A DNA stretch of 64,000 nucleotides from Paramacrobiotus metropolitanus (lineage: Eukaryota > Tardigrada > Eutardigrada > Parachela > Macrobiotidae): positions 558,001 through 622,000 of the forward strand of contig NW_026570233.1 in the NCBI RefSeq assembly GCF_019649055.1. The letters run 5' to 3'. Positions 21,770 through 57,746 of the stretch are shown in pieces (position 1 is the first letter of the stretch; every line of letters starts with the position of its first letter). Under the pieces are notes generated by a model, which saw only the letters and a list, made by a program, of their open reading frames with translations, was not told the origin of the DNA and ran no database searches. Position numbers and translations under genes: made by a program.

Positions 21770-23768
21770 TTAAACGACATTATCCAAGCGAATTTCAATA
21801 TCCATTTTATAGTGGGCGATGTCGCCTTTGCCTTGCGCAGTCGCATGCAAGATATTATTCCCATCGATGTTGTACGTTACATCAAACTTGCACTCTCCCC
21901 TCTTCCGTGGGGGCAAACCAGGAATGACAAATCCTCCAATTCGGAACTTGTCCAAAGTGAATCCGCGTTTACTCTGATACACACTGAAATCCACCTCTGT
22001 CTGATAATCGTAAGATGTGTGGAAAACGTCGGTAACACTGGAAGGGAATGCTGTCCCCCGAGGAATCAGATCGCAGATGCGTGTACTGCCTGGCCGCGAT
22101 CGATCCACCACCTTCAGTCCATAATGGTACGCTGTGACCTCCTGTACGTTGGTTGGCTGACGGTTGTTTATGCGGTAGGACTGCATGGCGGCGCCACGCG
22201 CGATCGTCTCATCCGGATCGGCATCCGCGCACACCACTCCTTCCCGGCCGAAAAACGTCTGCAGGGTCTCTTTCACCGCCGGCATCCGACTGCTGCCGCC
22301 CACCAAGATGACCTTGTCGATATCTCCAGGCGCCAATTTAGCGGCTTCCAGGGCGTTCTTCACTGGAACCAAGATGCTCGGGAGCAGACCGCTGAACATG
22401 CCGTTGAAGGTCGCTTTCGTCAGCTCTAAATCGTAGTCAAGGCCTTCACGCAGCTTGTGCACGATTTCCCGATATGTGCCACTGTAGGGACTGGACAGCG
22501 CGATCTTGGCCTGTTCGGCGGCCAGTTTCAGTTTTGCCAAGGCTTTGCTATCATGGGCCAAATCGATGCCATGGCGGCGACGGATGTCGTCCAGGAAATG
22601 CTGGACAATCTCGGCATCGAAATTCTCCCCGCCCAAATACATGTCGCCGTCCGTGCTGAGGACGCGGTACTCGTTGCGGCCCTCCACCTTCATGATGCTG
22701 ATGTCCAATGTTCCGCCGCCGAAGTCGAAGACTAGGATGGTGCACTGCTCATCCACGACGCCGCCGTAGGCGATGGCGGCGGCGGTCGGTTCGTTCAACA
22801 GGCTAACGTCTTTGAAGCCTGCCAGGCGGGCGGCGGTCAGCGTGGCGGCGCGCTGAGTCTCCATGAAATTAGCCGGAGTAGTCACTACCGCGGAGGTCAC
22901 CTTGCTGCCCAGGAATCCTTCAGCCATCTCCTTCAAATACCCAAGCAGCGAGGAGCTGACCTCCTCCGGACGGATAACCTTCTGCCAGATGACGTTGCCG
23001 CTCTCGCTGCACTGTTCGACCTGCAAACAGCCGCGTTTACAATGCATTGCAGGGAAAACGTGAACAGTTAACCATAAGCAACTTTTGCACGAGCGCAAGG
23101 CAATGAAATGAGCTTTATAAACTACAGACAAAGAACTTTACTCGTACGCTGTACGGTTAGCACTTGATACTGATACTGACAGAAGAACTCTCTTCTGAAA
23201 TATTATTTTCGTATTGAAAATTTCGTTTTATGAAACGCACTGTTTTAATAAGACTTTATTCGTAGCTGTTTTGCCGCTTTCGGTTATATAAGCGTAAGAT
23301 CGATATAAACCGGGCAGGTGTAAACGAAATGTAAATTAAACAGTCTTACGATAAGAATGCCTAGTATACATCTTGAAGTTCTTAACATCTATAAACGTAA
23401 TTAACAAACCTATACCCGTATAAATTCAAGTATTTAAATCAGAGATAACCAGCAATCACCCGTATGGCCGGGGATCCTCTATCGTTGATGATTGCAAAGG
23501 GCATCAGACTGCGTTCCACTGTCACAGCGGGATCGTCGAATCTGCGTCCAATGATCCGCTTAGCGTTGCGGATAGTATTGCGACTGTTGTCCGGGCTAAG
23601 GCGTTTGGCCTGTCGGCCCACATCCATCCCGTCCCGCTCCAGGCGCACCCACGACGGTGTGGTGGCGTCGCCGATTTTGTTCTTAATCACCTGCGGACTC
23701 CGGCCATGCTTGTAGACAAACAGGCAGCAGTGCGTCGTGCCCAGATCGATGCCTACTCCGTCAGCCAT
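21770..23768 (-). CDS. Lidless Hsp70, array copy A1
   Basis: Exons 23460-23768 (103 codons) and 21770-23020 (416 aa plus stop), joined in phase 0 over a 439-nt intron, give 519 aa. The start MADGVGIDLGTT is chosen because all five A copies share it. ATPase motifs are intact: GIDLGTTHCCLFVYKHGR, NAKRIIGRRF (active-site Lys), NEPTAAAIAYG, LVFDFGGGTLDISIM and VILVGGSSRMP. The usual hydrophobic Leu-rich interdomain linker is missing; NVQEVTAYHYGLKV stands there. The beta-sandwich substrate domain follows (LIPRGTAFP, GGFVIPGLPPRKRGECKF) and the protein ends at IRLDNVV, before the helical lid and the EEVD tail of a roughly 640-residue Hsp70. A cytosolic chaperone ATPase is inferred. The intron donor is weak (GTGATT). 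It is divergent from B1. Confidence 0.9.
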
Positions 23769-24049
23769 GTCTGGATTTAAGTAAAACCGAGGCAAACAAA
23801 AATCCCTTGTATGCAGTACGCACAGAGCTGAAGATGGAAACCCCGAACAACACTCTTAAATTTTAAGGCATCAATCGACGATAGAAAAAGCGCGCCACGT
23901 TGGAAAAGTACACAGTTTTATACTGATTAAAATTGGAAACGCGTGAACTGGTGAACAACAATTAATTAAGATCCCGCGACCGGCTATAACGAAGAAAGCC
24001 CTATACAGCAGCTACAGCAGAATGAGAAATTGTGGCTCGTGCAGCGCGA

Positions 24050-24140
24050 CCAGTCGGAGCTGTCCAGTAAGCGGCTAACAGAAACGCAACAGAGCGTGTC
24101 GGCTGTCTTTGAGATCAAAGCGCCCGATTCGCGGGGCCGT
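24050..24140. promoter_or_regulatory. Conserved promoter block of pair 1
   Basis: A stretch recurring upstream of all five A genes: GTAAGCGGCTAACAGAAACG, then CAACAGAGCGTGTCGGCTG and the near-palindrome CTTTGAGATCAAAG. It lies about 300 bp upstream of the A1 start and about 1.2 kb upstream of B1. The rest of 23769-25297 shows no gene. Confidence 0.65.
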
Positions 24141-25297: not shown

Positions 25298-27427
25298 ATG
25301 AGCGGATTACGGTTGGGAGTGGACATCGGATTCAAGAAGATCTCGATTGCACTGTACGAGAATGGTGTACCGCGTGTGCTGCACAGTTTTCCCTCCGTGG
25401 CGGCCTGCAGCAAGGATCACAGAGAATGGCATTTCGGTATGGACGCGCGCAGCTTCCAAGCGGACACCAATTACCGTTATATGGGTAGTGTTAAACTTAT
25501 ACTGTTGGAGCACGGCTACAGAGAGAAGAATTCGCTTGTATCGTTGCTGTTGGAAGGACTCTTTACTCACATTAAGATGATTGGGGAAACTGAACGGAAG
25601 CAGTGCCTTCAAGGCGTCGTTGTGGTTTTATCGCACTGTCTCGACACGTTCCATGTCGTCCGTCAAGAGGTGATCGAAGCCTGGCAGAAGAATGGCGTAC
25701 CGGATGTCTTCTGCATCTCTGATGTATCGGCCATTCTGCTGGCTTACACCGTGCAGACACTGGACCGGCAATCCCTCAGCACGAGCAAGACTGGACCGGT
25801 TAGTCTCTTAGTCTGCAATGCAGATGCCGAGCACTGCCGGGTGGACGTCTTCGAAGTGATCAATAACGATCTCGTCGTCAAATTCCTGAGTAATCATTGT
25901 GTTCTGTGGAACTGTTTCGGTGAACTGCGGCGGCGTGGTGTAGTCGCTGTCCATCAGCAGTTGAAGGGCGTTGGGATGCCCGAGTTGGATCAACGTTCGT
26001 GGGCGCAGCTGGAGCAAGAATGCTTGGAACAAATGTCTCTGTTTAACGATCCCCGGACTGACAAAGTGGCCATACGCGCCCCCGTTCATACGTATTTGGT
26101 TACTTACACGCGGGAGACGTACCATGCGGCGGTGGAACCAATCATCCAGTTCATCCGAACGCATGTCGTGACGGAGTTAACGAGGATCGGCATAATTGAC
26201 GCAAATACCGGTAACATTAGCGGAAAAGTGGAACTGCTGTTGGTGGGCGAGAATTCCCGCTTGGGACTGTTGCGGAGCGCGCTGGAGAGTGTCACGAAGA
26301 GCCAGGTGATTGCCGGAGTGGCGAGTTATGTGGACGATGCAGAGGCCTTTGGTGCGGCGATCGCCAGCAGTCTGTGGGGGAACAACGCAGATATCAATAG
26401 AGAAGTTCAGCTCTACCGACTGCAAGAAGGAATCGCGCTCAGTATGAGAGTCATACTAAAGACATTGCCGGTACGGGACGCTAACCTTATGGTACAACCG
26501 GCACGGGATGTCTTCATTAGCAACCGCCGTGATTTTGTCCTGTCCGGACGATTGTACATGGGTGACGGGAAAGAGGTCTTTGGCATTCTTGATTGTCGCC
26601 TGGTATTGTCTATGCAGAAGATAGGAAACTGCGAAGTGCACTGTTTAAAACTGGAAAACAACTTCAATGGTCAACCGGTAACGTACATGCGGATGTTGTT
26701 GGGGAAGGATGTCTGGATGCTGTGGCGTACACTGCAGCGTAAAAGAACTGATCAGACGGTCGTCGAATGTCAATATCTAGGGATGCAAGTTTCGTTCACG
26801 TATCGAGATAGCTCTGGCTGTAGTAATCTTGGATTTTTTGCGGATGACGCCAGCACTTATAAGCCGTTTTTAGAGGAGTACAAAGCCCGGAAACGAGAAA
26901 TGTTGAACATGTTTCCCTCTGCATCTGACGGTATGTTCACAGGATTTCAATCCTGAAGGACTATTGGTTTATGTTGTAATGTGGTTGCAAAATATTAGTT
27001 CATCTTTTTGGCGTACACAGTACACGAGTCACTACTAAGTACTAATCGTAAGCAGTGTATTGTTTGTTCAGGGGACAAATCTCTTCCTGCGTTAGAGTGG
27101 CCATCCGCGTCCTCCTTCGTTGCTCTTGTGTCAGACCAGCTTCCTACCAAGCATTCCCATGAAATTCACAAAAATCAGCAGCATCCAAGCATTGTAACCG
27201 TTAATTGTTCCTCCACGCGGGATCTCGTTGTCGTGGTCCAGCAGTGCCAAGAAGTAACCGGAAAGCTGCGAGTAATTGGAAACACTTTCGCAATCGAACG
27301 GCCGCATAAGATTCGCCCGGAATCTACTGAGAGGGATACAATTGTTATTGAACTGACGCCGCAAGACTGTGTTCGTGTTAGCTTTCCAAACGAAGCCACC
27401 CGCTGGAGTTTTCTTAAAAAGTGTTAA
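25298..27427 (+). CDS. Pseudo-ATPase Hsp70-like protein, array copy B1
   Basis: Exons 25298-26930 and 27072-27427 (phase 1) give 662 aa. The start MSGLRLGVDIGFKK is conserved among copies; an in-frame ATG at 25232 is ignored because an acceptor (TTCTCAG) lies between. The order of Hsp70 ATPase-domain elements can be followed, but signatures are degenerate: GVDIGFKKISIALYENG replaces the DLGTT loop, LLVCNADAEHCRVDVFEV replaces the GGGT loop, and VELLLVGENSRLGLLRSAL keeps the adenosine-motif pattern. ATP binding is therefore doubtful. A beta-rich middle (VQPARDVFISNRRDFVLSG) resembles a substrate domain. The separate last exon encodes about 118 aa with SSFVALVSDQ, HPSIVTVN, VVVVQQCQEVTGKL and VRVSFPNEATRW, a domain not recognised. 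It is paired head-to-head with A1. Confidence 0.8.
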
Positions 27428-28607: not shown

Positions 28608-30536
28608 CTAAACGACATTATCCAGGCGGATGTCGATATTCTTCTTGTAGTGGGCGATGTCGTCTTTCCCTTGCGCCGTCGCGTGCAAGATGTTGTTCCG
28701 ATCGATGCTGTATGTCACATCAAACAAACACCCTCCAGCTTTCCGCCGAGGCAGATCCGGAATGACAAACTGGCCAATGCGAAATTTGTCCAGATTAAAT
28801 CCGCGTTTACTTTGATACACATCGAAATCCACGCTAGCCTGATTATCGTAGGCTGTGACAAAAACTCTCGAAACACTGGCAGGATATGCTCTCCCCCGGG
28901 GAAGCAACTCGCGGATTCGCGTACTGCCGGCTTCCAGTTCGTCCACCACTTTCAGTCCATAGTGATAGGCGGTAACCTCCTGAACGTTGGTAGCCTGCTG
29001 ATTATTGATGCGGTAGGACTGCATGGCGGCGCCGCGAGCAATCGTCTCATCCGGATCGGCATCCGCGCACACCACTCCTTCCCGGCCGAAAAACGTCTGC
29101 AGGGTCTCTTTCACCGCCGGCATCCGACTGCTGCCGCCCACCAAGATGACCTTGTCGATATCTCCAGGCGCCAATTTAGCGGCTTCCAGGGCGTTCTTCA
29201 CTGGAACCAAGATGCTCGGCAGCAGACGGCCGAACATCCCGCTTAAGGTCGCTTTCGTCAGCTCTAAATTGTAGTCAAGGCCCTCACGCAGCTTGTGCAA
29301 GGTTTCCCGGTATGTGCCACTGTACGGACTGGCGAGGGCGATCTTGGCCTGTTCGGCGGCCAGTTTCAGTTTTGCCAAGGCTTTGCTATCATGGGCCAAA
29401 TCGATGCCATGGCGGCGACGGATGTCGTCCAGGAAATGCTGGACAATCTCGGCATCGAAATTCTCCCCGCCCAAATACATGTCGCCGTCGGTGCTGAGGA
29501 CGCGGTACTCGTTGCGGCCCTCCACCTTCATGATGCTGATATCCAGTGTTCCGCCGCCGAAGTCGAAGACTAGGATGGTGCACTGCTCATCCACAACGCC
29601 GCCGTAGGCGATGGCGGCAGCTGTCGGTTCGTTCAACAGGCTGACGTCTTTGAAGCCGGCCAGGCGGGCGGCGCTCAGCGTGGCAGCACGTTGCGTCTCC
29701 ATGAAATTGGCCGGAGTAGTCACTACCACGGAGGTCACCTTGCTGCCCAGGAATCCCTCGGCCATCTCCTTCAAATACCCCAGCATCGTGGCGCTCACCT
29801 CTTCCGGACGGATAACCTTTTCCCAAATAACGTTGCCGCTCTCACTACACTGTTCCACCTGCAAATTGTCCCATGTGCCAGTCATGTTCTTTCTTTTCAC
29901 ATTAGTACATCGTTGTAAGGTACTAACTGCAATATCTGGACAAAACTACTCGAAGTAAGTACGCTAAAGCACTGCGCTCTCAAACGATCGAACGACTTCA
30001 AACAATATGTAAAACCAAAACATCAAAATAATCTTAGCACACAACCATATTATTTACAAACCGCAGTAGTTTGTTTAGTTCTGCATTCAAAATAAATCAA
30101 ATAATGTAGTAAATATTGCAGCAATGTCACATGTACAACAAGACGATGTACTCCACAACAGTGTTATAGTACTCCACAACAGTGTTATATACATAATAAT
30201 TAATTTTAAATTGCGGAGGACCCTCACTCGTATCGCAGGGGTTCCGTTGTCGTTGATAATTGCAAAGGGCATCAGACTGCGTTCAGTCTTCACCGCAGCG
30301 TCGTAGAAGCTGCGTCCAATGATGCGCTTTGCATTGCGAATGGTGTTGCGGCTGTAGTCGGGACTCTGTCGCTTGGCGTATTTGCCCACCTCCATCCCAT
30401 CCCGCTCCAAACGCACCCAGGACGGAGTGGTAGTCTCGCCGATGTTGTTTTTGATGACTTGCGGGCTACGGCCGTGCTTATACACGAACAGACAACAATG
30501 CGTCGTGCCAAGATCAATTCCTACCCCGTCAGCCAT
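28608..30536 (-). CDS. Lidless Hsp70, array copy A2
   Basis: Exons 30228-30536 and 28608-29858 (309 and 1251 nt, phase 0, 369-nt intron) encode 519 aa, exactly the A1 layout. ATPase signatures are all present: DLGTT, LVFDFGGGTLDISIM, NEPTAAAIAYG, VILVGGSSRMP. The segment 29035-29218 is essentially identical to A1 22200-22380 at the DNA level, synonymous sites included, while the substrate-binding part differs (VSRVFVTAYDNQASVDFDVY against VTDVFHTSYDYQTEVDFSVY in A1). It lacks the lid, the EEVD and the Leu-rich linker. The donor is CGA/GTGAGG. A 24-bp duplication lies inside the intron (30149-30193). It is divergent from B2; their promoter region carries a MITE-like insertion. Confidence 0.9.
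30149..30193. repeat. Direct duplication in the A2 intron
   Basis: The phrase TACTCCACAACAGTGTTATA occurs twice in tandem. It is not seen in the introns of the other A copies. Confidence 0.85.
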
Positions 30537-32398: not shown

Positions 32399-34522
32399 AT
32401 GAGTGAACTGCGGTTGGGAGTGGAAATCGGATTCAAGAAGATCTCCATTGCGCAGTACGAGAACGGTGTGCCGCGGGTGCTGCTCAGCTTTCCATCCGTC
32501 GCGGCCTGCAGCAATGATCACCACGACTGGCATTTTGGTATGGATGCGCGCAGCTACCGCGCTGACAGCCGATACCAATCCCTCCCCTCGATTAAAGGCA
32601 CATTGCTGGCGTACGGCTGCGGCGAGAAGGATCCGCTTTTGCCGCTGCTGTTGGAGAAGCTCTTTGCCTACATCAAGATGATCGGAGAGACTGAACGGAA
32701 GCAGTGTCTCCGAGGCGTTGTTGTCGTTCTGCCGCATGGTCTGAATTGCAGTCCAGTCATCCGTCAACTGGTGATGGACGCCTGGCAGAAGAACAGCGTC
32801 ATGGATGTCCTGTGCATCTCCGACGTATCGGCCATTCTGCTGGCCTACACCGTGCAGACACTGGACCGGCAATCCATCAACACCAACGCATCCGAACCGG
32901 TTCATCTGCTGGTGTGCAATGCGGATTCGGAGCACTGCCGTGTAGACGTCTTCGAGGTGATTCAGAACAACCACCTCGTCAAGTTTCACAGTGGCCAATA
33001 TGTTGTGTGGAAGTGCTTCGCTAGACTGCGGCGACACCTGGTCAACGCTGTTTTTCAACATTTCAAGAGAGCCGGGATGCCTGAATTGGATCAGCGTATG
33101 TTGCTGCAGCTGGAGGAGGAGTGCGTGGACCAGATGGCGCTTTTTAACGATCCGCGGACCGAGAAAGTAACCATTCGTGCCCCACTACAGAAGTATGTCA
33201 TGATCTGTACCCGGAAGACATACCATGCGGTGGCGGAGTCAAGCGTTGAAGTCGTCCGAAAGCGTGTCGTGGCGGAGTTAACGAGGTTCGGTCTCATGGA
33301 CGCCAACACCGGGAACATTAAAGGGAACTGCGGCTGCTGTTGGTGGGCGAGAATTCCCGGTTGGGGCTGTTGCGCAGGGCGTTGGAGGATGTCACAAAGA
33401 GCCAGATAATTGCCGGAGTGGCGAGTTATGTGGACGATGCGGAAGCGTTTGGTGCGGCGATTGCCAGCAGTCTGGCGGGGAACCGTGCGAATATCGATAG
33501 ACAGGAACTGCTTTTTCGGTTGCAAGAGGGACTCGCATTCAATTTGGAAAAAATACTAAGGACTCTAACGTCGCCGCTTCAAGAGGCCCACGCTCTGGTG
33601 CAACCGGCTCGGGATATCTTCATCAGCGACGTCCGTCGGGACTTTGCGCTGTCCGGCGAATTATATATGGGTTACCCGAAAGAGCCCGTTACCCTTCCTG
33701 CTTCCCGCCTGCTGTTGTCCACTCAGAAGATGGGAAGGTCCAAAGTGCACTGTATTAGCTTGGAAAGCAGCGTAAACAGTCAGCCGGTGACGTACATGCG
33801 GATGCTACTCGGTAGGGATGTGCGGATTCAGTTGCGCAAATTACAGCCTGATAGGCCGGACGATACGGCCGACAAATATTTGTGGATTCAGGCGTCTTTT
33901 ACATATCGAGAGAGCGCCGGCTGGAGCAATCTCTGGGTTTTTGCTGATGACCCCAGTGCTTATGAGCCGTTCATGGTGGAATACGACGCGCGACGGCGAG
34001 AAATGCTGAACTCATTTCCTTCTGCAGCTGACGGTACGTAACCGATCGAAGGACTCTGGCGTATTTATGTACAAACAGTAGTACGATACCCGTCAAAGAC
34101 AGGTAACAGTGTACTAATTAATCACGTAATGTTTTTCAGCGGACAAACCACTTCCTAATGTAGAGTGGCCATCATCGTCCTCGTTTGTCGCCCTTGTTTC
34201 CGACCAGCTGTCGACCCAGCATTCGTATGCAATCGAGAAAAACCGTCAGCATCCAAGCATTGTTACCGTCAATTACAGCTTCACGCAGGGGGTGGTTGTC
34301 GTGGTCCAACAGTGCCAAGAAGTGACCGGAAAGCTGCAAGCGATGGAGAGCGCTTTCGTCATCGAACGGCCGCATAAAACCCGAGAAAGTACGGTGGATG
34401 GAGATACCGTTGTCATTGAGTTGACACCACAAGATTGCGTCCGTGTTAGCTTTCCCAACGAAGCCACTCGCTGGGATTTCCTTAAAAAGTGTTCGGTCTT
34501 TTGGCAGCTGTGCACGCTGTGA
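32399..34522 (+). CDS. Pseudo-ATPase Hsp70-like protein, array copy B2, with one apparent frameshift
   Basis: Exons 32399-34033 and 34140-34522. The first exon is one base shorter than in B1, B3 and B5: near 33326 the sequence reads AAAGGGAACTGCGG where the paralogues imply an extra A, so the frame breaks in the middle of the adenosine-motif region and resumes at once (VGENSRLGLLRRALEDVTKS). The splice phase at the exon end is correct only if that base is restored. The rest matches the family: MSELRLGVEIGFKK, LLVCNADSEHCRVDVFEV, VQPARDIFISD, and the last-exon domain (SSFVALVSDQ, VVVVVQQCQEVTGKL, DFLKKC). It is either a recent null allele or an assembly error; no other damage is visible. Confidence 0.75.
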
Positions 34523-35301: not shown

Positions 35302-35370
35302 GCAACCATTACACGACATTATCCAGGCAGATATCGATATTCTTCTTGTAATGGGCAATGTGGACAGACA
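35302..35370 (-). pseudogene. Relic of an A-gene 3' end
   Basis: The complement of this stretch matches the last codons and immediate 3' flank of the A genes: it contains ATTATCCAGGCAGATATCGA on the plus strand, as in A2 at 28617 and A4 at 44712, and continues into TTCTTCTTGTAATGGGC. Nothing else of the gene remains. It lies in the unusually long B2-A3 spacer in the orientation expected for an A gene, pointing to a lost pair. Confidence 0.7.
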
Positions 35371-41050: not shown

Positions 41051-43440
41051 ATGAGCGAGTTGCGGTTGGGAGTGGAAATCGGGTTCAAGAAGATAACTAT
41101 TGCGCTGTACGAGAACGGTGTGCCGCGTGTAATGTCCAGTTTTCCTTCCATCGCGGCCTGTAGTATTGATCGCACCGAATGGCACTTCGGCGTGGACGCG
41201 CGCAACTACAAAGCTGATACCAGATACTGTTTCTTCCCCTCGGTGAAAGACACGCTGCTGGCTTATGGCTACGGTGAGCAAAATCCATCTATTCCATTTA
41301 TGTTGGAAAATCTGTTCGCGCGTATCAGGATGATTGCGCAAGCCGAACGCAAGCAGTGTATCCGTGGCATCGTTTTCGTTTTGTCGCATAATCTGGATTC
41401 CATCCACGTTATTCGGCAAGCGGTGGTGGGTGCCTGGCAGACGATTGGCGTACTCGATGTCCTGTGCATCTCCGACCCATCAGCCATTCTGCTGGCGTTT
41501 ACCGTACAGACGTTGGACCGACAATCGTTTCAAACGAGCGCCACTGAGCCGCTTTTTCTGTTGGTGTGCAATGCCGATTCTGACCATTTCCGGATGGATG
41601 TCTTCGCTGTGATCAGCAACAACCATGTCGTCAAATGTCAGAGCAGCCAGCATGTTCTGGTTAATTTTTTCGTTGAAATGCGCCGGCGCGTGGCAGATGC
41701 GATCCACCAGAAGCTGAAAAATATCGGCATGTCCCCATTAGATGACCGCTCGTTGGCGCAGCTGCGGGAAGACTGTTGGGACCAGGTGGCGTTATTTAAC
41801 GATCACCGAACCGAAAAAGTGACCATTCGCTCTCCGTTCCACAAGGATGCCGTGGTGTATCAGCGGCAGGCATATTACGCGGAGATTGAGCCAGTCATCG
41901 AAGCCGCCCGAAAGTATGTCGTGGCAGATTTGACGAGATTTGGTATAATGGACGCGAACAACGGAAATATCAACGGGAAAGTTGAGCTGTTAGTGGTCGG
42001 CGAGAATTCCCGGTTAGGGTTACTGCGCACTGCGCTGGAAGGTGTAACGAAGAGCCAGGTGATTGCCGGAGCGGCGAGTTATGTGGACGATGCGGAGGCG
42101 TTTGGAGCAGCGATAGCCAGCAGTCTGGCGGGAAACAGTGCGAATATCCACAGGCAGCATTTGTTGTTTCGACTGGAAGAGGGACGCGTATTCGACATGG
42201 AAAAGATCATGAAAGCGCTGCCGGTGCAGGAGACCAGCATTGTGGTTCAACCGGCACGGGATATCTTCATCAGCGACCGCCGCGATGTTTCTCTTTCCGG
42301 CTACTTGTACGTTGGCAACCCAAGAGCGCTCGTTGATATTGCCTCATTTCGCTTGGTACTGTGTACTCCGAAAATAGATGACTGCAAAGTGCATTGCATC
42401 GATCTGGAAAGCAGCGTTAACGGTCAGTCGGTGACGTTCATGCGGATGTTGCTGGGAAAGGATTTGCGGATTCAGCTAAAAAAGCTAACGCGCTATAGAA
42501 ACGGTCAACGACTCATTGATTGCCAATTACTGTGGCTAGAGGCGTCGTTTATGTATCAGGAGAATACTGGATCAAGTCAACTTGTTTTTCTTGTGGATGA
42601 CGCCAGCGATTACAAGCCGTTTATGGAAGAGTACGACGCGCGGAATGGGGAGATGCTGAACGCATTTCCTTCTGCAGATGGCGGTACGTATGCATTCTAT
42701 ATAGGAAATTCTTGAACGAAGGGCTGTTTACTGGTAGAGTAATAGCGAATAACGATACACCATCATTTCGGATTACGTGGTCGGTGGTATACCTGTTTGC
42801 AGAGTGTAGGCTGCTAAACTTATGGCAACTTTGAAAATTTGTCGTATGTGTTCTTTTAGTGCGTTCTCAGTGTATGTGCGTGCGTTCATTAGTAAGCTCA
42901 TAAATTCCGCTTTTTAACAAATTAATCAAATTTGAATGCCAAAACCAAATTTATGTGACAGAAAATCTAGGAAAATGCCGTTACTGTACCTTGGCTGTAG
43001 TCGAAGTAAAACACGTATAATTATGATATATTACCATAATAAGTTTTGCGCTGGTTGTTTTTCTAGCGGGCGAATCACTTCCTAAGCTACCGTGGTCATC
43101 AGTGTCCTCGTTTGTCGCTCTTGTCTCAGACCAGTGGCCTACCAAACAGTCCCATGAAATTCATAAAAATCAGCAGCATCCCAGCATTGTTACCGTTAAT
43201 GGCTTCTCCAAGCAGGAATTCGTTGTCGTGGTCCAGCAGTGCCAGGAAGTGACCGAAAAGCTGCAAGTGATGGGAAACACTTTTGTAATCGAACGGCCGT
43301 ACAAGATTCGCAAAGAACCTGTGGAACGCGATACAGTTATCATTGAATTGACTCCGCAAGATTGCGTTCGTGTCAGCTTTCCCAATGAAACCACCAGCTG
43401 GGATTTTTTAAAAAAGTGTCCGGTTTCTTATATCTCGTAA
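41051..43440 (+). CDS. Pseudo-ATPase Hsp70-like protein, array copy B3
   Basis: Exons 41051-42683 and 43067-43440 (phase 1 join, 383-nt intron) give 668 aa. The first exon is 1633 nt, the same as B1 and B5. It starts MSELRLGVEIGFKK; an acceptor-like TTTTTCCAG lies just upstream. Degenerate phosphate loops: GVEIGFKKITIALYENG and LLVCNADSDHFRMDVFAV. The adenosine-like motif ELLVVGENSRLGLLRTALEG is kept, followed by SYVDDAEAFGAAIASSLAG. The middle domain has VQPARDIFISDRRDVSLSG. The last-exon domain is present (SSFVALVSDQWPTKQ, FVVVVQQCQEVTEKL, VRVSFPNETTSWDFLKKC). The whole frame is open, with no sign of decay. The partner is A3, whose own C-terminus is truncated. Confidence 0.82.
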
Positions 43441-44701: not shown

Positions 44702-46721
44702 TTAAACGACATTATCCAGGCGGATTTCGATGTTCTTTTTGTAGTGGGCTATTTCGTCTTTCCCTTCCGCCGTTGCGTGCAAGATGTTATTCCCATCGAT
44801 GCTGTACGTCACATCAAACATGCATTCTCCCGCCTTCCGCAGCGGCAGATCAGGAATAACAAAATGGCCAATACGAAACTTGTCCAGACTGAATCCGCGT
44901 TTACTCTGGTACACTTCGAAGTCCACTTCATCTTGATTATCGTAAGCTGTGACGAAAGCTTTCGTAACACTTGTAGGATACACTTTCCCGCGGGGAATCA
45001 ATTCGCGGATACGCGTGCTGCCCACTTGCAAATCCTCTACAACTTTCAGCCCGTAATGGTAGGCTGTGACCTCCTGGACGTTCGCCGCCTGCCGATTATT
45101 GATGCGATAGGACTGCATGGCGGCGCCCCGAGCAATAGCCTCGTCCGGATCGGCATCCGCGCATACAACTCCTTCTCGGCCGAAAAACGCCTGCAGCGCC
45201 TCCTTGACCGCCGGCAGCCGACTGCTCCCGCCCACCAGTATGACCTTATCGATCTCCTCAGGTGACAGCTTAGCGGCTTCCAGGGCGTTCTTCAGGGGGA
45301 CCAGGATCTCCTCGAGCAGAAAGCCGAACATCCCGTTAAAGGTCGCTTTCGTCAACTCCACGTTGTAGTCGAACTCTCCATGCAGTTTGTATACAGTATC
45401 CCGATATATGGGTGTGTACGGACTGGACAGCGCGATCTTGGCCTCTTCGGCAACCAGTTTCAGTTTCGCAAGGGATTTGCTATCTTTTGCCAAATCGATG
45501 TTGTGGCGGCGGCGAATGTCCTCCAGAAAATGCTGGACAATCTCGACATCGAAGTTCTCCCCGCCCAAGTACATGTCGCCGTCGGTGCTGAGGACACGAT
45601 ATTCATTGCGGCCCTCCACCTTCATAATGCTGATGTCCAGCGTGCCACCGCCGAAATCGAACACCAGAATGGTGCACTGCTCGTCCACCACGCCGCCGTA
45701 AGCAATTGCGGCGGCTGTCGGTTCGTTCAGCAGACTGACCTCGGTGAAGCCGGCCAGGCGGGCGGCAGTCAGCGTGGCGGAGCGTTGGGTCTCTATAAAA
45801 TTGGCCGGAATCGTCACCACCGCCGTGGTCACTTCATTGCCCAGGAATGTTTCAGCCATCTCCTTCAGATACGCCAGCATCTTGGCGCTGATCTCTTCCG
45901 GACGGGTCAACTTCGCCCAAATGACCTCACCGCTTTCATTGTATTGTTCCACCTGCAAGACAGTTGCGTTTAACATACACGACCTAAGCGATAATTTCGT
46001 TTTTCTAACCATGACAAGATCCACAAGAACGACGAAGCACTAGGCTGTTACACGATCCAGCAATAATAATCTCCATTAATTCGTAACGAAATGAAGCGCA
46101 AACGCGCAAATTTAAATTTATCAAAATAGTACCGTGTTGTTGCTACTTAGTACTTGCCATGACTTGCTTTCATTCACAGAAAAAATTACTGGTAGACCCA
46201 ATTTTGGAATCATTCATTAATTTACATAACTTATAGCTTCATTAAAGTAATCATGCGATTATATCATTTAAATGGTAAAACGTAAAGATTTGAGTGGTTT
46301 GGTAAAGTAAAAGTCCATCAAAATTAACGACATTCAGGTAGTCATTAAACACATTTGCGTTAGCTATTGCCTATGGCATACTTACCTATCTTTCTTAATT
46401 TTAAACTCTTACCCGAATCCCAGGGGATCCGTTGTCGTTAATAATTGAAAAGGGCATCAGGCTACGCTCCATGGTCACGGCGGCATCATCGAAGCTGCGC
46501 CCAATGAGGCGCTTCGCATTCCGAACAGTGTTGCGGCTGTGGTCCGGACTCTGTCGCTTGGCTTGTTTGCCCACATCTATCCCATCCCGCTCCAGGCGGA
46601 CCCAAGACGGCGTGGTGGTGTCGCCGGCTCTGTTCTTAACCACTTGCGGATTGCGACCATGTTTGTACACAAATAGACAACAATGCGTAGTGCCTAAATC
46701 GATGCCTACTCCATCTGCCAT
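44702..46721 (-). CDS. Lidless Hsp70, array copy A4
   Basis: Exons 46413-46721 (309 nt) and 44702-45952 (1251 nt), phase 0, with a 460-nt intron (donor GTAAGA, acceptor CTTGCAG), encode 519 aa. ATPase motifs: GIDLGTTHCCLFVYKHGR, NAKRLIGRSF, NEPTAAAIAYG, LVFDFGGGTLDISIM, VILVGGSSRLP. The linker position reads NVQEVTAYHYGLKV. The substrate segment is distinct (VTKAFVTAYDNQDEVDFEVY) and the protein ends IEIRLDNVV without lid or EEVD. An upstream in-frame ATG would add nine residues (MLLNFKSNN), but five-way conservation favours MADGVG. It is divergent from B4 with the shortest promoter interval of the array (954 bp). Confidence 0.9.
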
Positions 46722-47675: not shown

Positions 47676-49778
47676 ATGACCGGATTACGGTTGGGAGTGG
47701 AAATTGGATTCAAGAAGATTACTATTGCGCTGTACGAGAGCGGTGTGCCGCGGGTGTTGTTCAGCTTTCCTTCCATCGCGGCTTGTAGTGTTGATCGCAC
47801 CGAATGGCACTTCGGCGTGGACGCGCGCAACTACAAAGCTGACAACAGATACCGCAATTTCCCCTCGGTTAAAGGCACGCTGCTGGCTTACGGCTACGGT
47901 GAGCAGAATCCGTTTGTGCCGCTGCTGCTGGAGAAGCTCTTCGCCTTCATTAAGATGATTGGTCAAACCGAACGGAAGCAGTGTCTCCAAGGCGTTGTTG
48001 TCGTTCTCTCTCATGGCCTACACGCCTGCCAAAATATCTATCAAGCGGTGACGGAAGCCTGGCAAAAAAACGACTTAACCGATGTCCTGTGTATCTCCGA
48101 TATATCAGCCATTGTACTGGCGTACACGGTGCAGACGCTGGACCGGCAGTCCATAAAGAAGAGCGGGATAGAGCCGGTTAATGTGTTGGTGTGCAATGCA
48201 GATGCGGAGCATTTCCGGATGGGCGTCTTCGAAGTGATCAACAACAACCTCGTCGTCAAATACAAAAGCAACCAGTATGTTGTGTGGGACTGTTTCACTG
48301 AACTGCGGTGGCGCGTTTTTGATGATATCCATCAGCGCTTGGAGAGCGTTGGGATGCCTGCACTGGATCTGCATTTACGGACGCAACTAGGAGAGGAGTG
48401 CGGGGACCACATGGCGTTATTTAACGATTCCCGAACCGTTAGAGTGATCATTCGCGCCCCTGTCCCGAACTGTATCGTGACGTACACGCGGGAGGATTAC
48501 CAGGCGGTGGTAAAGCCAATCATCGAAGCCATCCGAAAACATGTCGCGGCGGAGTTAGTGAACTTTGGTATAATGGACGGGAGCAGCGGAAACGTCGGCG
48601 GGAAAGTTGAGTTGCTAGTGGTTGGCGAAAATTCCCGGTTAGGGTTATTGCGCACCGCGTTGGAGGGGGTAACGAAGAGCCAGGTGATTGCCGGAGCGGC
48701 GAGTTATGTGGACGATGCGGAAGCGTTCGGTGCGGCGATTGCCAGCAGTCTGGCTGGAAATAGCGGGAATTTATACGGACAACACCAGCTCTTTCGACTG
48801 CAAGAAGGACTCGCATTCGATGTGGGAAAGATACTGACGGCGCTGCCGTTATTGGACGACAACATTCGCGTGCAACCGGCGCGGGATATCCTCGTTAACG
48901 ACCATAAGAATGTGGCCCTGTCCGGGTACTTGTACATGGGAAACGGGAAAGGGCCTGTCATAATTCCCGATTTTCGTCTCGTGTTGTCCACTCAGAAGAT
49001 CCGAAGCTGCAAAGCGCACTGTGTACACCTGGAAACCAGCGTTGATGGACAAACGATGACGTATATGCGAATGTTGCTGGGCAAGGATGTACGCATTCAG
49101 TGTCGCGAACTACAGCGTGAAGAACCGGATGAGATGGTCGTTGAATGTTTACGGATACAGGTGTCATTTACGTATCAGGACAGCGCGGGCCGGAGCAGTC
49201 TTTGGTTTTTTGCGGATGACGCCAGCGCTTATGAGCCTTTTATGGCGGAATACCACACGCGACGACGCGAAATGCTGAAAGCGTTTCCTTCTGGAAATAA
49301 CGGTATGTACGTAACCTTTTAGTAGAAATTTAAAGATACGTTGTGCCAAGAAAGGTTAGCAATAGCATACGATTGAGCCGTGTTCTGATCGCTTCCAGCG
49401 GACGAATCGCTTCCTAAGCTAGCGTGGTCATCATCGTCTTCGTTTGTCGCGCTTGTGTCGGACCAGCTGCCTACCGCGGAGTTTCAGGAAATAAATAAAA
49501 TTCAGAAACGTCCGAGCATTGTTACCGTCAATCAAGATTCACAGCATGGCCTGGTTGTTGTGGTCCAACAGTGCCAGGAAGTGACCAAAATGCAAATGAG
49601 GGGAAACACGTTTGCGATCGAACGGCCGAATAAAATCCGTGAATGTTCCGTGGAGCACGATACAGTCGTCATTGAGTTAACGTCACACGATTGTGTTCGT
49701 GTCAACTTTCCCAGGGAAGCTACCCGCCGGGATTTTCTTAAAAAGTGTTCTGTCTTTTGGCCGTTGGGCAAACCGTGA
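47676..49778 (+). CDS. Pseudo-ATPase Hsp70-like protein, array copy B4
   Basis: Exons 47676-49302 and 49399-49778 (phase 1, 96-nt intron) give 668 aa. The start is MTGLRLGVEIGFKK; the acceptor-like run CTTTTTCAG ends five bases upstream. Phosphate-loop replacements are GVEIGFKKITIALYESG and VLVCNADAEHFRMGVFEV; the second has also lost the Asp kept in other B copies (MDVF or VDVF becomes MGVF). ELLVVGENSRLGLLRTALEG and SYVDDAEAFGAAIASSLAG follow. The middle domain has VQPARDILVNDHKNVALSG. The last-exon domain is intact (SSFVALVSDQLPTAE, LVVVVQQCQEVTK, VRVNFPREATRRDFLKKC). It lies head-to-head with A4, and the two share the best preserved promoter block. Confidence 0.82.
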
Positions 49779-51544: not shown

Positions 51545-51792
51545 TCCACTGTCCAGCATTGCGTAAGCAGTGCCTACTCGTGGTTACTGTCAATAACTCA
51601 TTCACGCAGGGCGTGGTTATTGTGATGAACAGTGCCCGTAAGCAACCGGGCAGCGGCGACTGACGCGAAATACATTTGCAGTCGAACGTCCCAATAAAAC
51701 CCACGAAAGAAGATACAGTCGTCATTGAATTGGCTCCGCAAGACTGTGTTTATGTCACCTTTCACATCTTTTGGCAATCGTGTAGGCTGTGA
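51545..51792 (+). pseudogene. Decayed last exon of a B gene
   Basis: DNA-level matches to the last exon of the B genes run in order: TTACTGTCAATAACTCATTC with ACGCAGGGCGTGGTTATTGT, then CAGTCGAACGTCCCAATAAA, then GATACAGTCGTCATTGAATT with GGCTCCGCAAGACTGTGTTT, and a terminal CTTTTGGCAATCGTGTAGG. Several deletions break the frame, and no first exon is found upstream. The orientation matches the B genes. Its place in the long B4-A5 spacer indicates a lost pair. Confidence 0.8.
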
Positions 51793-52281: not shown

Positions 52282-54284
52282 TCAAACGACATTATCCAGG
52301 CGGATGTCGATATTTTTCTTGTAGTGGGCAATGTCGCCTTTACCCTGTGCCGCCGCGTGCAGAATATTGTTCCCATCGATGCTGTATGTCACGTCAAACT
52401 TGCACTCTCCCGCCTTCCGCAAAGGTAAACCAGGAATGACAAATTCACCAATACGGAATTTGTCCAGATTAAACCCGCGTTTACTCTGATAAATGCTGAA
52501 CTTAGCAGCCGCTTGATTATCATAGAATGTCCCAAAGACTTCCGTCATACTGGAAGGATATGCTTTTCCTCGGGGGATCAAGTCACGGATGCGCATACTG
52601 CCAGGTCGCACACGGTCCGCAACTTCCAGTCCATAGTGGTAGGCGGTGACCTCGTGGACGTTGGTGGCCTGCTGGTTGTTAATACGGTACGACTGCATGG
52701 CAGCCCCCCGCGCTATCGCCTCATCCGGATCAGCATCCGCGCAAACCACTCCGCTCCGACCGAAGAACGCCTGCAGTGTCTCTTTAACCACCGGCAGCCG
52801 ACTGCTGCCACCCACCAAGATGACCTTATCGATATCGCCCGGTGACAGGCTCGCAGCATCCAGAGCGTTCTTCACCGGGACGAGAATCTTCTGGAGAAGA
52901 TCCCGGAACATTCCGCTGAAAGTAGCTTTTGTCAGCTCCACGTTGTAATCGATGTTTCCATACAGTTTGTGCAAGGTATCGCGGAATGTGCCGCTATACG
53001 GACTGGACAGCGTGATCTTAGCCTTTTCGGCGACCAGTTTCAGTTTGGCTAAGGTTTTGCTATCTTGTGCCAGATCGACCTGGTGGCGGCGGCGAATGTC
53101 GTCTAAGAAATGCTGAACAATCTCGCTGTCGAAGTTCTCCCCGCCCAAATACATGTCGCCGTCGGTGCTGAGGACGCGATATTCATTGCGGCCATCCACC
53201 TTCATAATGCTGATGTCCAGCGTGCCGCCGCCGAAATCAAACACCAGAATGGTGCACTGCTCGTCGATGACGCCGCCGTAAGCGATGGCGGCGGCCGTCG
53301 GCTCGTTCAACAAGTTGACCTCCGTGAACCCTGCCAGGCGGGCGGCGTTGAGAGTGGCAGCGCGCTGAGTCTCCATGAAATTGGCCGGAATGGTCACCAC
53401 GGCAGATGTCACTTTCCTGCCCAGAAACCCCTCGGCCATCTCTTTCAAATACGACATCATCGTGGCGCTGATCTGCTCCGGCCGAACGATCTTTTCCCAA
53501 ATGATATCGCCCGCATCTGTGCACTGTTCAACCTACAAGATTATAAGATTAATAAGAACCTTTGCTCACGTAAGATTTGTAGTCAGTACAAACATTTGTA
53601 TTTAGTAGAGCACCCGCTGGCAGAAACGAATCTAATGGGAAAGGAGTACTGTATAATAGTGTATTTTGACTTAAACTTATTAAAATAACAAGTTGTGATT
53701 GATTCAGGTTTTAATAAAGCCAAAATCTTTTTTTACAGCGAGTCTGTCAGAAATGCCTCTACGAGTCTACGTAGCTTGTTTACGTTGCTTTAGTTGCGTT
53801 TGCAGTTTGCCAGTTAAGAATTAAGATGTAATTTTCCATTAAATTAGGTGTTAAATTTTTAATAATTAGGTTTATCGATTAGCCTAGATAATCAGAAATT
53901 TAAAACTTATGGATTCATAACCAATATTCATTAGTGATTAGCGATAAGTACTTATTTAGATGCAGATGCACCCACCTTTATCGCTGGTGACCCGTTGTCG
54001 TTAACAATGGCAAACGGCATTAGACTGCGTTCCATTGTCACGGCGGAATCGTCGAAACGGCGTCCAATTAGACGCTTAGCATTACGAATGGTATTCCGGC
54101 TATTCTCGGGACTGAGTCGCTTGGCGTGTTTGCCCACATCCATCCCGTCCCGCTCCAAACGCACCCAGGACGGCGTGGTGGTGTCGCCGTTGTTGTTCTT
54201 AATCACTTGCGGACTGCGGCCGTGCTTGTACACGAACAGGCAACAATGTGTTGTGCCCAAATCGATGCCTACTCCGTCAGCCAT
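52282..54284 (-). CDS. Lidless Hsp70, array copy A5
   Basis: Exons 53976-54284 (309 nt) and 52282-53532 (1251 nt), phase 0, with a 443-nt intron (donor GTGGGT, acceptor TCTTGTAG), encode 519 aa, the standard A layout. Motifs: GIDLGTTHCCLFVYKHGR, NAKRLIGRRF, NEPTAAAIAYG, LVFDFGGGTLDISIM with KVDGRNEY (others have KVEG), and VILVGGSSRLP. The linker position reads NVHEVTAYHYGLEV. The substrate segment is the most different in charge (MTEVFGTFYDNQAAAKFSIY). It ends IDIRLDNVV with no lid or EEVD. The region after the intron, CTDAGDIIWEKIVRPEQISA, has diverged from the CSESG form of A1 and A2. It is divergent from B5 over 1.3 kb. Confidence 0.9.
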
Positions 54285-54610: not shown

Positions 54611-55600
54611 GGTTACTATTGGCTGTCTTTGTCAAGAATAGGTGGAACCCTCTTGTCGAAGGCTTTCTTGTGTGGGTGGTTACATCTTTGCAAGGTATCT
54701 TCACTTAACATACCTTGATCAAGTGAAGTTACCTTGATCTTTGCAAACTGCGTCATTCCAGGTTTTTCATGGTGATTTAGCTCATTTCTCGTAGGCTCGT
54801 ACCTTATTACTTATCTGCATATATGCAGTTTGCCCTGGATACAGTTATGCACTATGTACTGTAAATTAGCACTATAAACGTCATCTCTACCTTTTATCTG
54901 TTGATACAGCACAATTTTCGGATTTATAATTTATTCCTCGATATTGCTATCCCGCAGCGACGGTAGGTACTCTGTAGATAGTTCTTTGTAATTATACTTT
55001 GTAATAGATAAACAGTAAATAGTTATCTTTTTGATTGTGTTTTTGTGGCGCTGTCCATTATGCTCAAGGTGAATAAACGAGATACTTATAATAGTTCTGC
55101 CACCAGCCAGTAAATAAACAGTTTATGTTTTGTTATGTTGTGTTACATTTGGTTAACTTTTTTGCGTCTGCTCTCCGCAGTTAAGAAGCAGAGAAGTGCA
55201 AAACTTTAGTACATATGTACAATACTCGTACGCGTGGTAAGAGCTATTAATAATCCGGTATTGTGAACTCGTTACAGTAAACGAACAATTGTTTACTGTT
55301 CACTGTTACCTAAATTTTAGTATTTTCAGTAAACTGGTAACTAAAATATTCATAGAACTATTCGACGCGCGATCGTATACAGCGTACTTGTTGCCAGTGC
55401 TTACGCGCAGGACCACAGTAAACTTGATTTCTATGGGATATGGTCAATAGACTCAATACCGATACTTCACTACTTGCTACAGGTAGTCACAACTTACACC
55501 ATTATAAGTTAGGAAAAATTGGCAATGCAGTGCGCGCTAACTGACTAGCACGTGTTTATGTTCAGTCAAATGTAGATTATTAATTACTTTTCTAGAAACC

Positions 55601-57746
55601 ATGAGCGGATTACGGTTAGGAGTGGACATTGGATTCAAGAAGACCTCGGTTGCGCTGTACGAGAACGGTGTGCCGCGTGAACTGTTCAGATTTCCTTCCG
55701 TCGCGGCTTACAGTGCTGATAACACCGAATGGTATTTCGGCGTGGACGCGGGCAGCTACCAAACTGACAGAAAGTATCGGACCATCCCATCGGTCAAACG
55801 CACGCTTCTGGCTTACGGCTACGGAGAAAAGAATATACTGGTACCCTTGCTATTGGAACGACTCTTCGCTCACATTAAAATGATTGGGGAAGCTGAGCGA
55901 AATCCAGGTGTCCGTGGCGTGGTTATTGTACTGTCGCATGTTCTGGACGCTAGTCAAGTGATGCGGCAAGCAGTGATGGACGCCTGGCGGAAGAACGGCG
56001 TACCGGATGTCCTGTGCATTTCCGACGTAGCGGCTGTTCTACTGGCCTACACTGTGCAGACACTGGACAGACAGTCCATTAACACGAGCGCTACTGAGCC
56101 GGTTTATCTCTTGGTGTGCAATGCAGATTCTGAGCACTGCCGCGTAGACGTCTTCGAAGTGATCAACAACAACCACATCGTCAAATTTCAGGGTAATCGA
56201 TATGTTTTGTTTGCCTGTTTCACCCAAATGCAGAAGCGCGTTATAGCCGGCATCCATCAGCAGCTGACGAACACCGGGATGTCTAATTTAGATCAACGTT
56301 CGTGGGACCAGTTTAAAGAAGAGTGCATGGACCACGTAGCGCTCTTTAACGATCCCCGAACTGACAAAGTGACCATCCGCGTTCCATTCCACAAGTCGGT
56401 CGTGACGTATTCCAGGGAGGCGTACCATATCGCGGTGGCGCCAGTCATCGAAGTCGTTCGAAAGCATGTCGTGGCGGAGTTGACGCGGTTCGGAATTATA
56501 GACGCGAGCACTGGAAATATTAACGGGAAAATCGAGCTGTTATTGGTGGGCGAGAATTCTCGGTTGGGGCCTTTACGCACTGAGCTGGAGGGTGTAACGA
56601 AAAGCCAAGTGATTGCCGGAGCGGCGAGTTATGTGGATGATGCGGAGGCGTTTGGTGCGGCGATTGCCAGCAGTCTGGTGGGAAATAACGCGAATGCCCT
56701 CAAACACCAGCAACTCTTCCGGCTACAGGAGGGGCTGGTATTCGATATGGAAAATGTACTGAAGACGCTGCCGCAACAAGGCGCCCACGTTCTTGTACAA
56801 CCGGCGCGGGACATCTTCGTCAGTGACCTTCCTGATGTTCCCTTGTTCGGCAAACTGTACATGGGCAAGCCCAAACAACTCGTCATCGTTCCCTCTTTTT
56901 GTCTGAGATTGTCCTCTCAAAAGATGGACAACTGTAAAGTGCATTGTCTTCATCTTGAAAGCAACGTCGACGGGCAACCCTTAGCGTACGTGCGGATGAT
57001 ACTTGGGAAGGATGTGCGGATTCACTGTCACATACCACAGCGCGAAAGAAGCGATCAGAAAGCCGTCCCATATTTGTCGCTGCAGGTGCCATTTACGTAT
57101 CAGGGAAGCGCTGGCTGGAGCACTATCTGGTTCTTTGCGGGTGACACCAACGGCAACGTTTATAAATCGTTTCTGAAGGAATATGACGCCCGACAGCGAG
57201 AAATGCTTAATACATTTCCTTCCACAGCTGACGGTTAGTAGAAACTTCAGTTTGTAAACGTATGCTCTTCGTGGTTATACTTATGTCGTGGACTTACCGG
57301 TATTGCCGGGTAAGAATCTTAGCGGCGCACAAGCGTTAACAGTGCATTGCTTGTTTATAGCGGAGGGATCGCTTCCGAAGTTAGCGTGGTCATCATCGTC
57401 CTCTTTTGTCGCTCTCGTTTCGGACCAGCTGGCCGTTAAGAATTCCCATAAAATTCCGGAAAATCACTATCAGCCAAGCATTATCACCGCTAATCAGTGT
57501 TCCCAGCAGGGTATCGTTATCGTGGTACAGCAGTGCCAGGAAGTGACCGGAAAGCTGCAGGTGATGGGAAGCACTTTCGTCATCGAACGGCCGCATAAGA
57601 TCCGCAAAGATTCTGCGGAGGGGGATGCTGTCGTCATAGAGTTGACGGTGCAAGAATGTGTTCGTGTCCGCTTTCCTGACGAAGCTACCTGCAAAGATTT
57701 TCTTAAAAAGTTTGCGGACTCCTGGTCATGGTGGCGTGCTGCGTAG
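55601..57746 (+). CDS. Pseudo-ATPase Hsp70-like protein, array copy B5
   Basis: Exons 55601-57233 and 57361-57746 (phase 1; donor GTTAGT, acceptor TTTATAG) give 672 aa. The start is MSGLRLGVDIGFKK, with an acceptor-like CTTTTCTAG just upstream. Loops: GVDIGFKKTSVALYENG and LLVCNADSEHCRVDVFEV in place of DLGTT and GGGT. ELLLVGENSRLGPLRTELEG has Pro where other copies have Leu. SYVDDAEAFGAAIASSLVG follows. The middle domain has VQPARDIFVSDLPDVPLFG. The last-exon domain keeps SSFVALVSDQLAVK, IVIVVQQCQEVTGKL and VRVRFPDEATCKDFLKK. It is the last member of the array; nothing related follows to the right edge of the window. Confidence 0.82.

What the first reader, a model, noticed from the sequence alone, without database searches (positions are those of the whole stretch)
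21770..57746. Tandem array of five head-to-head Hsp70 / pseudo-Hsp70 gene pairs
A genes (21770, 28608, 38181, 44702, 52282; all -) alternate with B genes (25298, 32399, 41051, 47676, 55601; all +). Every unit has the same order, orientation and intron positions. A has an intact Hsp70 ATPase; B is an Hsp70-like protein with degenerate catalytic loops and its own last exon. Whole pairs have been duplicated, so selection seems to keep the two together. This suggests a two-component chaperone; I know of no described system with this layout.
Basis: partly seen in the sequence, partly recalled or inferred. Interest (0 to 1): 0.95.

Follow-up and report, generated by a model that had tools for sequence, protein, structure and literature searches.

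The report
Paired active and dead tardigrade Hsp70s
In what is almost certainly a tardigrade genome, a lidless Hsp70 with intact ATPase residues and a catalytically dead Hsp70 relative lie back to back and have been copied together many times, which suggests a two-part chaperone or switch worth testing.

Summary
The window holds five divergently transcribed A/B units. A is a 519-residue Hsp70 with intact ATPase motifs but without the lid domain and the usual linker. B is an Hsp70-fold protein whose phosphate-binding loops are lost in all nine copies with an intact exon 1; its last exon is only weakly PH-like. One window B is frameshifted and one A has a late stop. Across the genome I found 13 A genes; 11 sit head to head with a B, at seven places on four contigs, with intact paired B proteins down to 39% identity. 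A and B distances correlate (Mantel r 0.93, 11 pairs), so pairs were copied as units, although the two gene trees share only one deep split. Both proteins are under purifying selection, B more weakly. CAHS-like genes and the longest-contig length point to the eutardigrade Paramacrobiotus metropolitanus. An HSP70 expansion is published for another tardigrade; my searches listed no paper on such a paired layout. Most likely B is a pseudo-Hsp70 partner that regulates or anchors A, as Ssz1 or Hsp110 do for other Hsp70s. Interaction, co-expression and conservation in other tardigrades could not be tested here.

The parts
21770..23020 (-). A1 exon 2 (Hsp70 NBD part and SBD-beta; includes stop)
   Evidence: ORF and splice sites; Pfam HSP70 2e-99 for the reading frame
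23460..23768 (-). A1 exon 1 (start of Hsp70 NBD)
   Evidence: Pfam HSP70 1.1e-23
25298..26930 (+). B1 exon 1 (degenerate Hsp70 NBD and SBD-beta-like part)
   Evidence: family profile and B5 model match Hsp70
27072..27427 (+). B1 exon 2 (weakly PH-like family)
28608..29858 (-). A2 exon 2
30228..30536 (-). A2 exon 1
32399..34033 (+). B2 exon 1, frameshifted near 33,325 (pseudogene or assembly error)
34140..34522 (+). B2 exon 2
35312..35359 (-). relic of an A 3' end (16 residues, 94% identical, E 0.001)
38181..39398 (-). A3 exon 2, late premature TAG (508 instead of 519 residues in the whole protein)
39749..40057 (-). A3 exon 1
41051..42683 (+). B3 exon 1
43067..43440 (+). B3 exon 2
44702..45952 (-). 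A4 exon 2
46413..46721 (-). A4 exon 1
47676..49302 (+). B4 exon 1
49399..49778 (+). B4 exon 2
51580..51762 (+). relic similar to B exon 2 (32% identity, E 7e-4)
52282..53532 (-). A5 exon 2
53976..54284 (-). A5 exon 1
55601..57233 (+). B5 exon 1 (the copy used for the structure model)
57361..57746 (+). B5 exon 2 (Pfam ASK_PH E 0.02, below cut-off)

Best explanation
A tardigrade gene module of two divergently transcribed genes. A encodes a lidless Hsp70 (NBD plus SBD-beta) whose ATPase residues are intact. B encodes a pseudo-Hsp70 (degenerate NBD, SBD-beta-like part, extra C-terminal exon that may be PH-like). Shown: the anatomy, the homology, the head-to-head pairing at seven places, copying of whole pairs, purifying selection on both, and loss of the phosphate loops in 9 of 9 B copies with an intact exon 1. 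Inferred: the proteins form a heteromer in which the non-hydrolysing B regulates or anchors A, in the manner of Ssz1 or Hsp110 with their Hsp70, with the last exon acting as a targeting or scaffolding part; the array raises dose or diversifies clients.
For: Genome searches (counts are lower bounds): 13 A genes and 16 B loci; 11 of 13 A are head to head with a B, start-to-start gaps 670-4694 bp. The A and B dN matrices over 11 pairs correlate, Mantel r 0.93, p 0.00025; for the five window pairs alone r 0.63, p 0.0086, about the least p that five labels allow. dN/dS among the seven near units: A 0.11-0.20, B exon 1 0.25-0.36, B exon 2 0.19-0.41 (two of these seven B are frameshifted). B is an Hsp70 homologue: hhalign B profile to A profile E 1.9e-9, Foldseek best E 9.4e-14 with Hsp70-superfamily chains in the 50 rows shown, Pfam HSP70 matched by 5 of 10 members at E up to 1, best 7.8e-9, tblastn of A against a B locus E 1.3e-5. 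B active-site loops are lost in 9 of 9 aligned copies while the five A copies displayed keep them. VIA-align ranks RAC/Ssz1 entries first, Z 20.8, 20.8, 20.0, 19.7, against 19.0 for the best other Hsp70. The lowest pN/pS in B is in codons 301-330 (pN 0.10, pS 0.53). Of the five B loci without a head-to-head A, four are broken, deleted or end early.
Against: No interaction, expression or structure of the complex was tested. Three of 11 paired B genes are broken while their A is open; the paired versus orphan difference in breakage is not significant (Fisher p 0.11). The A and B trees share only 1 of 9 splits, and one pair of well-supported splits (97 and 100) conflicts, hinging on C123c, which is not a head-to-head pair. 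The two A genes on C123 are not head to head with a B. The B model has mean pLDDT 54, and VIA matches span mainly residues 40-387, so the Ssz1 lead is soft and the SBD-like part is little tested. The PH reading of exon 2 rests on weak Pfam matches (ASK_PH in 3 of 14 members, best E 0.0044), and its model failed (pLDDT 41). No B exon 2 was found at C1 or C224. No heat-shock element excess was seen, though the control regions showed none either.
Confidence: 0.5

Rival explanations
1. Passive co-duplication. A and B happen to be neighbours; segmental copying carried both, with no joint function. B is a diverging or decaying Hsp70 relative.
For: Broken B beside open A in W2, C13:653k and C13:1612k; among near units B dN is about twice A dN; A and B trees agree poorly; five B loci without a head-to-head A exist.
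Against: Nine B exon-1 frames of about 540 codons are open, and B dN/dS among the near units is 0.25-0.36; the head-to-head order persists at dispersed loci where synonymous sites are at or near saturation; none of the 13 A genes lies further than about 26 kb from a B, though the A fragment on C101 has none on its contig.
Confidence: 0.3
2. A paired signalling or sensing module on Hsp70 folds: A is the ATP-driven switch, B a membrane- or partner-binding receptor half, comparable in layout to head-to-head paired plant NLRs (recalled), rather than a protein-folding machine.
For: A lacks lid and canonical linker. The same genome fuses Hsp70 to a protein kinase (C85, C150) and to a RhoGEF domain (C86). 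The B last exon is weakly PH-like. The family is expanded and B diverges fast.
Against: No ligand, effector domain or immune expression known; the two fused Hsp70s that were in the tree (C85 kinase, C86 RhoGEF) fall outside the A and B clades.
Confidence: 0.15
3. B genes are mostly pseudogenes or gene-prediction ghosts.
For: 7 of 16 B loci are frameshifted, deleted or end early.
Against: Nine open exon-1 frames, splice sites kept in the window copies, dN/dS 0.25-0.36 among near units and constrained blocks. The assembly described for the probable species is nanopore-based with Illumina polishing (PMC8277472, passages seen), so single-base breaks may partly be errors.
Confidence: 0.05

Closest known systems
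Ssz1 (HSPA14 type) pseudo-Hsp70 of the ribosome-associated complex, with Ssb
   Same: Atypical Hsp70 with a truncated SBD that assists an active Hsp70 (recalled, and abstracts listed); top structural match to the B model.
   Different: Works with the J-protein Zuo1 at the ribosome; gene layout as head-to-head arrays not known to me (recalled). B has an extra C-terminal exon and destroyed phosphate loops, whereas an Ssz1 ATPase was solved with ATP bound (4gni title).
Hsp110 (Sse1, HSPH) with Hsp70
   Same: Divergent Hsp70 that acts as partner of an active Hsp70; appears among the structural matches (3c7n, 3d2e).
   Different: Hsp110 keeps ATP binding and a large helical SBD-alpha (recalled); in the low-confidence B models only one helix (519-538) and a beta-rich last exon follow the SBD-like part.
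Plant truncated cytosolic Hsp70 (Hsp70T, T1 clusters), PMC10687569 (abstract and outline seen)
   Same: Hsp70s without the C-terminal motif, expanded in tandem gene clusters.
   Different: Plants; no paired degenerate partner mentioned in the abstract.
HSP70 expansion of the tardigrade Hypsibius exemplaris, PMC6652013 (section 10 read, passages elsewhere) and PMC5531438 (passages seen)
   Same: A eutardigrade with an exceptional number of HSP70 genes (69 in PMC6652013).
   Different: Counts only in what I read; pairing, orientation or a degenerate partner not mentioned there.

Membership tests
Hsp70 (PF00012), protein A | HSP70 profile over the curated cut-off | tested here: met
   333.9 bits for the A1 exon-2 frame, cut-off 20.6
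Hsp70 (PF00012), protein A | intact ATPase residues (phosphate loops 1 and 2, Lys71, Glu175, adenosine loop; numbering recalled) | tested here: met
   aligned columns of five displayed A copies against own-genome Hsp70s
Hsp70 (PF00012), protein A | SBD-alpha lid, EEVD end and hydrophobic interdomain linker | tested here: not met
   A ends at HYKKNIDIRLDNVV or similar after SBD-beta; the linker columns read EVTAYHYG or similar. These features are not required for membership in PF00012
Hsp70 (PF00012), protein B | HSP70 profile over the curated cut-off | tested here: inconclusive
   window copies B1 and B5 below cut-off (9.9 and 12.2 bits); 5 of 10 members match at E up to 1, best 7.8e-9
Hsp70 (PF00012), protein B | Hsp70 fold | tested here: met
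   Foldseek best E 9.4e-14, VIA Z 18-21 in the rows shown, mainly the NBD, from a model of pLDDT 54
Hsp70 (PF00012), protein B | ATPase residues | tested here: not met
   FDLGGGT replaced by CNADSEH-like letters, Glu175 column is Asp, GTT of loop 1 lost, 9 of 9 aligned copies
Ssz1 / HSPA14 | NBD plus SBD-beta without lid | tested here: inconclusive
   order of predicted secondary structure and rank of matches fit, but the model is of low confidence and VIA spans mainly the NBD
Ssz1 / HSPA14 | orthology to Ssz1 | not tested
   no eukaryotic genome collection held here
Ssz1 / HSPA14 | complex with a Zuo1-type J-protein at the ribosome | not testable with these tools
   needs biochemistry
Hsp110 | large SBD-alpha helical domain | tested here: inconclusive
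   the low-confidence models show one helix (519-538) and a beta-rich exon 2
Hsp110 | nucleotide exchange on an Hsp70 | not testable with these tools
   needs an assay
PH domain (B exon 2) | PH profile over the curated cut-off | tested here: inconclusive
   ASK_PH in 3 of 14 members, best E 0.0044; PH_15 in 2 of 14, best 0.11; the only member row displayed is below cut-off (15.7 of 27.8 bits)

The most novel reading that the evidence does not exclude
The A/B pairs are a tardigrade two-component switch in which an active lidless Hsp70 and a dead, possibly PH-tailed Hsp70 form a sensor and effector pair, in a genome that has recruited Hsp70 folds into signalling proteins (kinase-Hsp70, Hsp70-RhoGEF) and copies the pair as a unit.
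Probability: 0.15. Interest if true: 0.88.

Novelty: new variant of a known kind. Interest (0 to 1): 0.63.

Why it matters
In the tardigrade papers that I saw, HSP70 expansions are reported as gene counts and discussed as chaperone reserve. Here part of such an expansion is an ordered set of active and dead Hsp70 pairs with unusual architecture. If the two proteins work together, this is a new natural case of pseudoenzyme control of Hsp70 and gives a defined gene set to test in stress tolerance. It also warns that HSP70 counts in tardigrades can mix classical chaperones with very different proteins.

Tried and rejected
Heat-shock elements: 6 matches with at most one mismatch (two of them exact) in 18.4 kb of A/B intergenic DNA against 5.3 expected from shuffles; six upstream regions of other Hsp70 genes gave 3 against 3.2, so the scan says nothing either way. 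Shared promoter element: short similarities some 230-420 bp upstream of the A start in near units only (five window units, and C13:653k with C16), no clear bidirectional motif. Relatives of B in viral and prokaryote contigs: none confirmed by tblastn, with patterns that reach close relatives only; one weak plasmid match, E 2e-4, with grpE annotated under it. PDB by sequence with the four-member B profile: none at E up to 1; with ten members a DnaK at E 0.0045. Exon 2 against PDB: nothing meaningful. Exon 2 structure: unusable. Gene conversion as the cause of the conserved B block: codons 301-330 keep high pS, so constraint is the better reading; codons 331-360 have lower pS, and some conversion is possible. 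A lipocalin/FABP search for taxonomy was not informative.

Paper searches for a described paired system or a related idea: (listings only, except the papers named in this report). No listed title or abstract start describes head-to-head active and dead Hsp70 pairs. Subscription journals and preprints are not held, and I recall work on fungal Hsp70-like immune proteins that these searches did not find.

Full report
OBSERVATION. The window contains five units in the order A(-) B(+). Exon boundaries were set from reading frames and splice signals. Each A has two exons joined by a phase-0 intron of 350-460 bp; each B has two exons joined by a phase-1 intron of 96-383 bp. The other four A exon-2 proteins are 80-88% identical to A1; the other three intact B exon-1 proteins are 60-64% identical to B1; the other four B last exons are 64-77% identical to B1. 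B2 is frameshifted near 33,325, and an assembly error is possible. A3 stops 11 residues early. Relics of an A end and of a B last exon lie in the two widest gaps.

THE GENOME. The window is contig C13:558001-622000 of a 169.8 Mb assembly of 533 contigs. PMC8277472 (passages seen) gives 170,483,395 bp, 684 scaffolds and a longest scaffold of 4,484,941 bp for Paramacrobiotus sp. TYO; PMC11191345 (passages seen) gives 170 Mbp and a 4.48 M longest scaffold for P. metropolitanus. Here C1 is 4,484,719 bp. The species is therefore very likely P. metropolitanus, as an inference; contig number and total differ somewhat.

HOW MANY PAIRS. Searching the genome with A5 exon 2 gave 13 genes at 54% identity or more plus a fragment on C101; the next Hsp70s are at 38%. 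Searching with B5 exon 1 gave 25 matches that I merge into 16 B loci. Both counts are lower bounds by the tool's own note. After fetching the loci and mapping exons, 11 of 13 A genes have a B head to head: five in the window, and C13:653k, C16:1103k, C13:1376k, C110:197k, C13:1619k (called C13:1612k after its B) and C1:4436k, i.e. seven places on four contigs. Start-to-start gaps are 670 to 4694 bp. Intact paired B proteins go down to 39% identity to B5 (C1; C110 41%, C13:1376k 48%). The two A genes on C123 are not head to head: one has a same-strand B about 6 kb downstream, the other lies about 26 kb from a B. Five B loci lack a head-to-head A: C123b (exon 1 intact), C123c (several frame breaks), C13:680k (a stop and frame breaks), C224 (match ends early, truncation or divergence), C346 (internal deletion). 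Among paired B genes three of 11 are broken (W2, C13:653k, C13:1612k). Paired versus orphan breakage (3 of 11 against 4 of 5) gives Fisher p 0.11, not significant.

WHAT A IS. Pfam HSP70 scores 334 bits for the A1 exon-2 frame; the best solved relatives are DnaK and Hsc70. The ATPase loops are intact in the five A copies displayed. The protein ends after SBD-beta: no lid and no EEVD, and the usual hydrophobic linker is replaced by letters such as EVTAYHYG. In a tree with ten other Hsp70s of the genome the 13 A form one clade (SH-aLRT 100).

WHAT B IS. Window copies B1 and B5 fall below the Pfam cut-off, and a four-member profile finds nothing in the PDB at E up to 1. With ten members the link is clear: hhalign of the B profile against the A profile gives E 1.9e-9 over 331 columns (a one-to-one comparison), Pfam HSP70 matches 5 of 10 members at E up to 1, best 7.8e-9, and Foldseek with the B5 model returns Hsp70-superfamily chains in the 50 rows shown, best E 9.4e-14. 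That model is of low confidence (pLDDT 53.9). VIA-align ranks three RAC entries and an Ssz1 ATPase first (Z 20.8, 20.8, 20.0, 19.7) against 19.0 for the next Hsp70; rows within 1 are tied and the span is mainly residues 40-387, so the Ssz1 lead is suggestive only. In all nine B copies aligned, the second phosphate loop FDLGGGT reads like CNADSEH, the Glu175 column is Asp and the GTT of loop 1 is lost; the adenosine loop is partly kept (VGENSRL). The B last exon has weak PH-family matches (ASK_PH in 3 of 14 members, PH_15 in 2 of 14); its structure model failed, and no last exon was found at C1 or C224.

SELECTION AND CO-DUPLICATION. By Nei-Gojobori counts among the seven near units (five window units, C13:653k, C16; two of the seven B are frameshifted) dN/dS is 0.11-0.20 for A, 0.25-0.36 for B exon 1 and 0.19-0.41 for B exon 2. 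The lowest pN/pS in B is in codons 301-330 (pN 0.10, pS 0.53). A and B distance matrices over the 11 pairs correlate (Mantel r 0.93, p 0.00025; seven near units r 0.48, p 0.03; five window units r 0.63, p 0.0086). The C123, C13:680k, C224, C346 and C101 loci were left out of this test because they form no head-to-head pair. Gene trees over 12 shared labels (including C123c) share only one of nine splits, the deep one supported at 100 and 98; one pair of well-supported splits (97 and 100) conflicts and hinges on C123c; among the near units, A joins W1 with W2 (99), while B joins W3 with W4 (81) and, weakly, W2 with C13:653k (53). So copying of pairs is supported, with some reshuffling, gene conversion or poor resolution. 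In the wider tree the earliest A (C123a) and the earliest of the nine intact B (C123b) lie on the same contig, which suggests that the two families have been linked since early in their history.

MECHANISM. The anatomy fits a non-hydrolysing Hsp70 relative that partners an active one, as Ssz1 with Ssb or Hsp110 with Hsp70. The missing lid in A and the extra exon in B argue against an ordinary folding cycle. I put 0.5 on a heteromeric A-B unit with B as regulator or anchor, 0.3 on passive co-duplication, 0.15 on a signalling or sensing pair and 0.05 on mostly dead B genes. Everything beyond sequence, copy number and selection is inference.

CONTEXT AND NOVELTY. Published tardigrade work reports an HSP70 expansion in Hypsibius exemplaris (69 genes; PMC6652013, section 10 read; PMC5531438, passages seen), with no mention of pairing in what I read. 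Eight searches listed no paper on head-to-head active and dead Hsp70 pairs. I rate it a new variant of a known kind: known protein family, known principle of pseudo-Hsp70 partners, new arrangement and architecture.

Noticed in passing
L024 (G000:C85:92501-95800) and L035 (G000:C150:132501-135500): Single reading frames that join a protein kinase domain to an Hsp70 NBD (Pkinase 2.6e-23 with HSP70 2e-89; Pkinase 1e-24 with HSP70 3.4e-31).
   Followed up: partly
L023 (G000:C86:209501-212600): Single frame joining an Hsp70 NBD to a RhoGEF domain (HSP70 2.5e-94, RhoGEF 2.8e-17). L034 on C49 may be similar by eye, as its C-terminal letters resemble a DH start; Pfam gave it no RhoGEF match.
   Followed up: partly
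G000:C83:95660-100277 (L018, L019): Another head-to-head pair: a canonical Hsp70 (-) and a degenerate Hsp70 (+) with Ala in the Glu175 column and Cys in the Thr204 column; both lie outside the A and B clades.
   Followed up: partly
window 35312-35359 and 51580-51762: Relics of A and of the B last exon between units, signs of lost units.
   Followed up: partly
window 15886-16248 (-), 17405-17767 (+), 60055-60738 (+): Frames on both sides of the array share a motif like WD(I/V/L)E.A with IVCGG or similar, which by eye resembles NYN-type nucleases; no Pfam support.
   Followed up: no
window 1174-1914 and 3699-4931: Tandem rhodopsin-type GPCR genes (7tm_1 4.2e-19 and 3e-18).
   Followed up: no
G000:C30:31845-32132 and others: CAHS-like sequences: 18 matches at about 16 places in this genome.
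   Followed up: no
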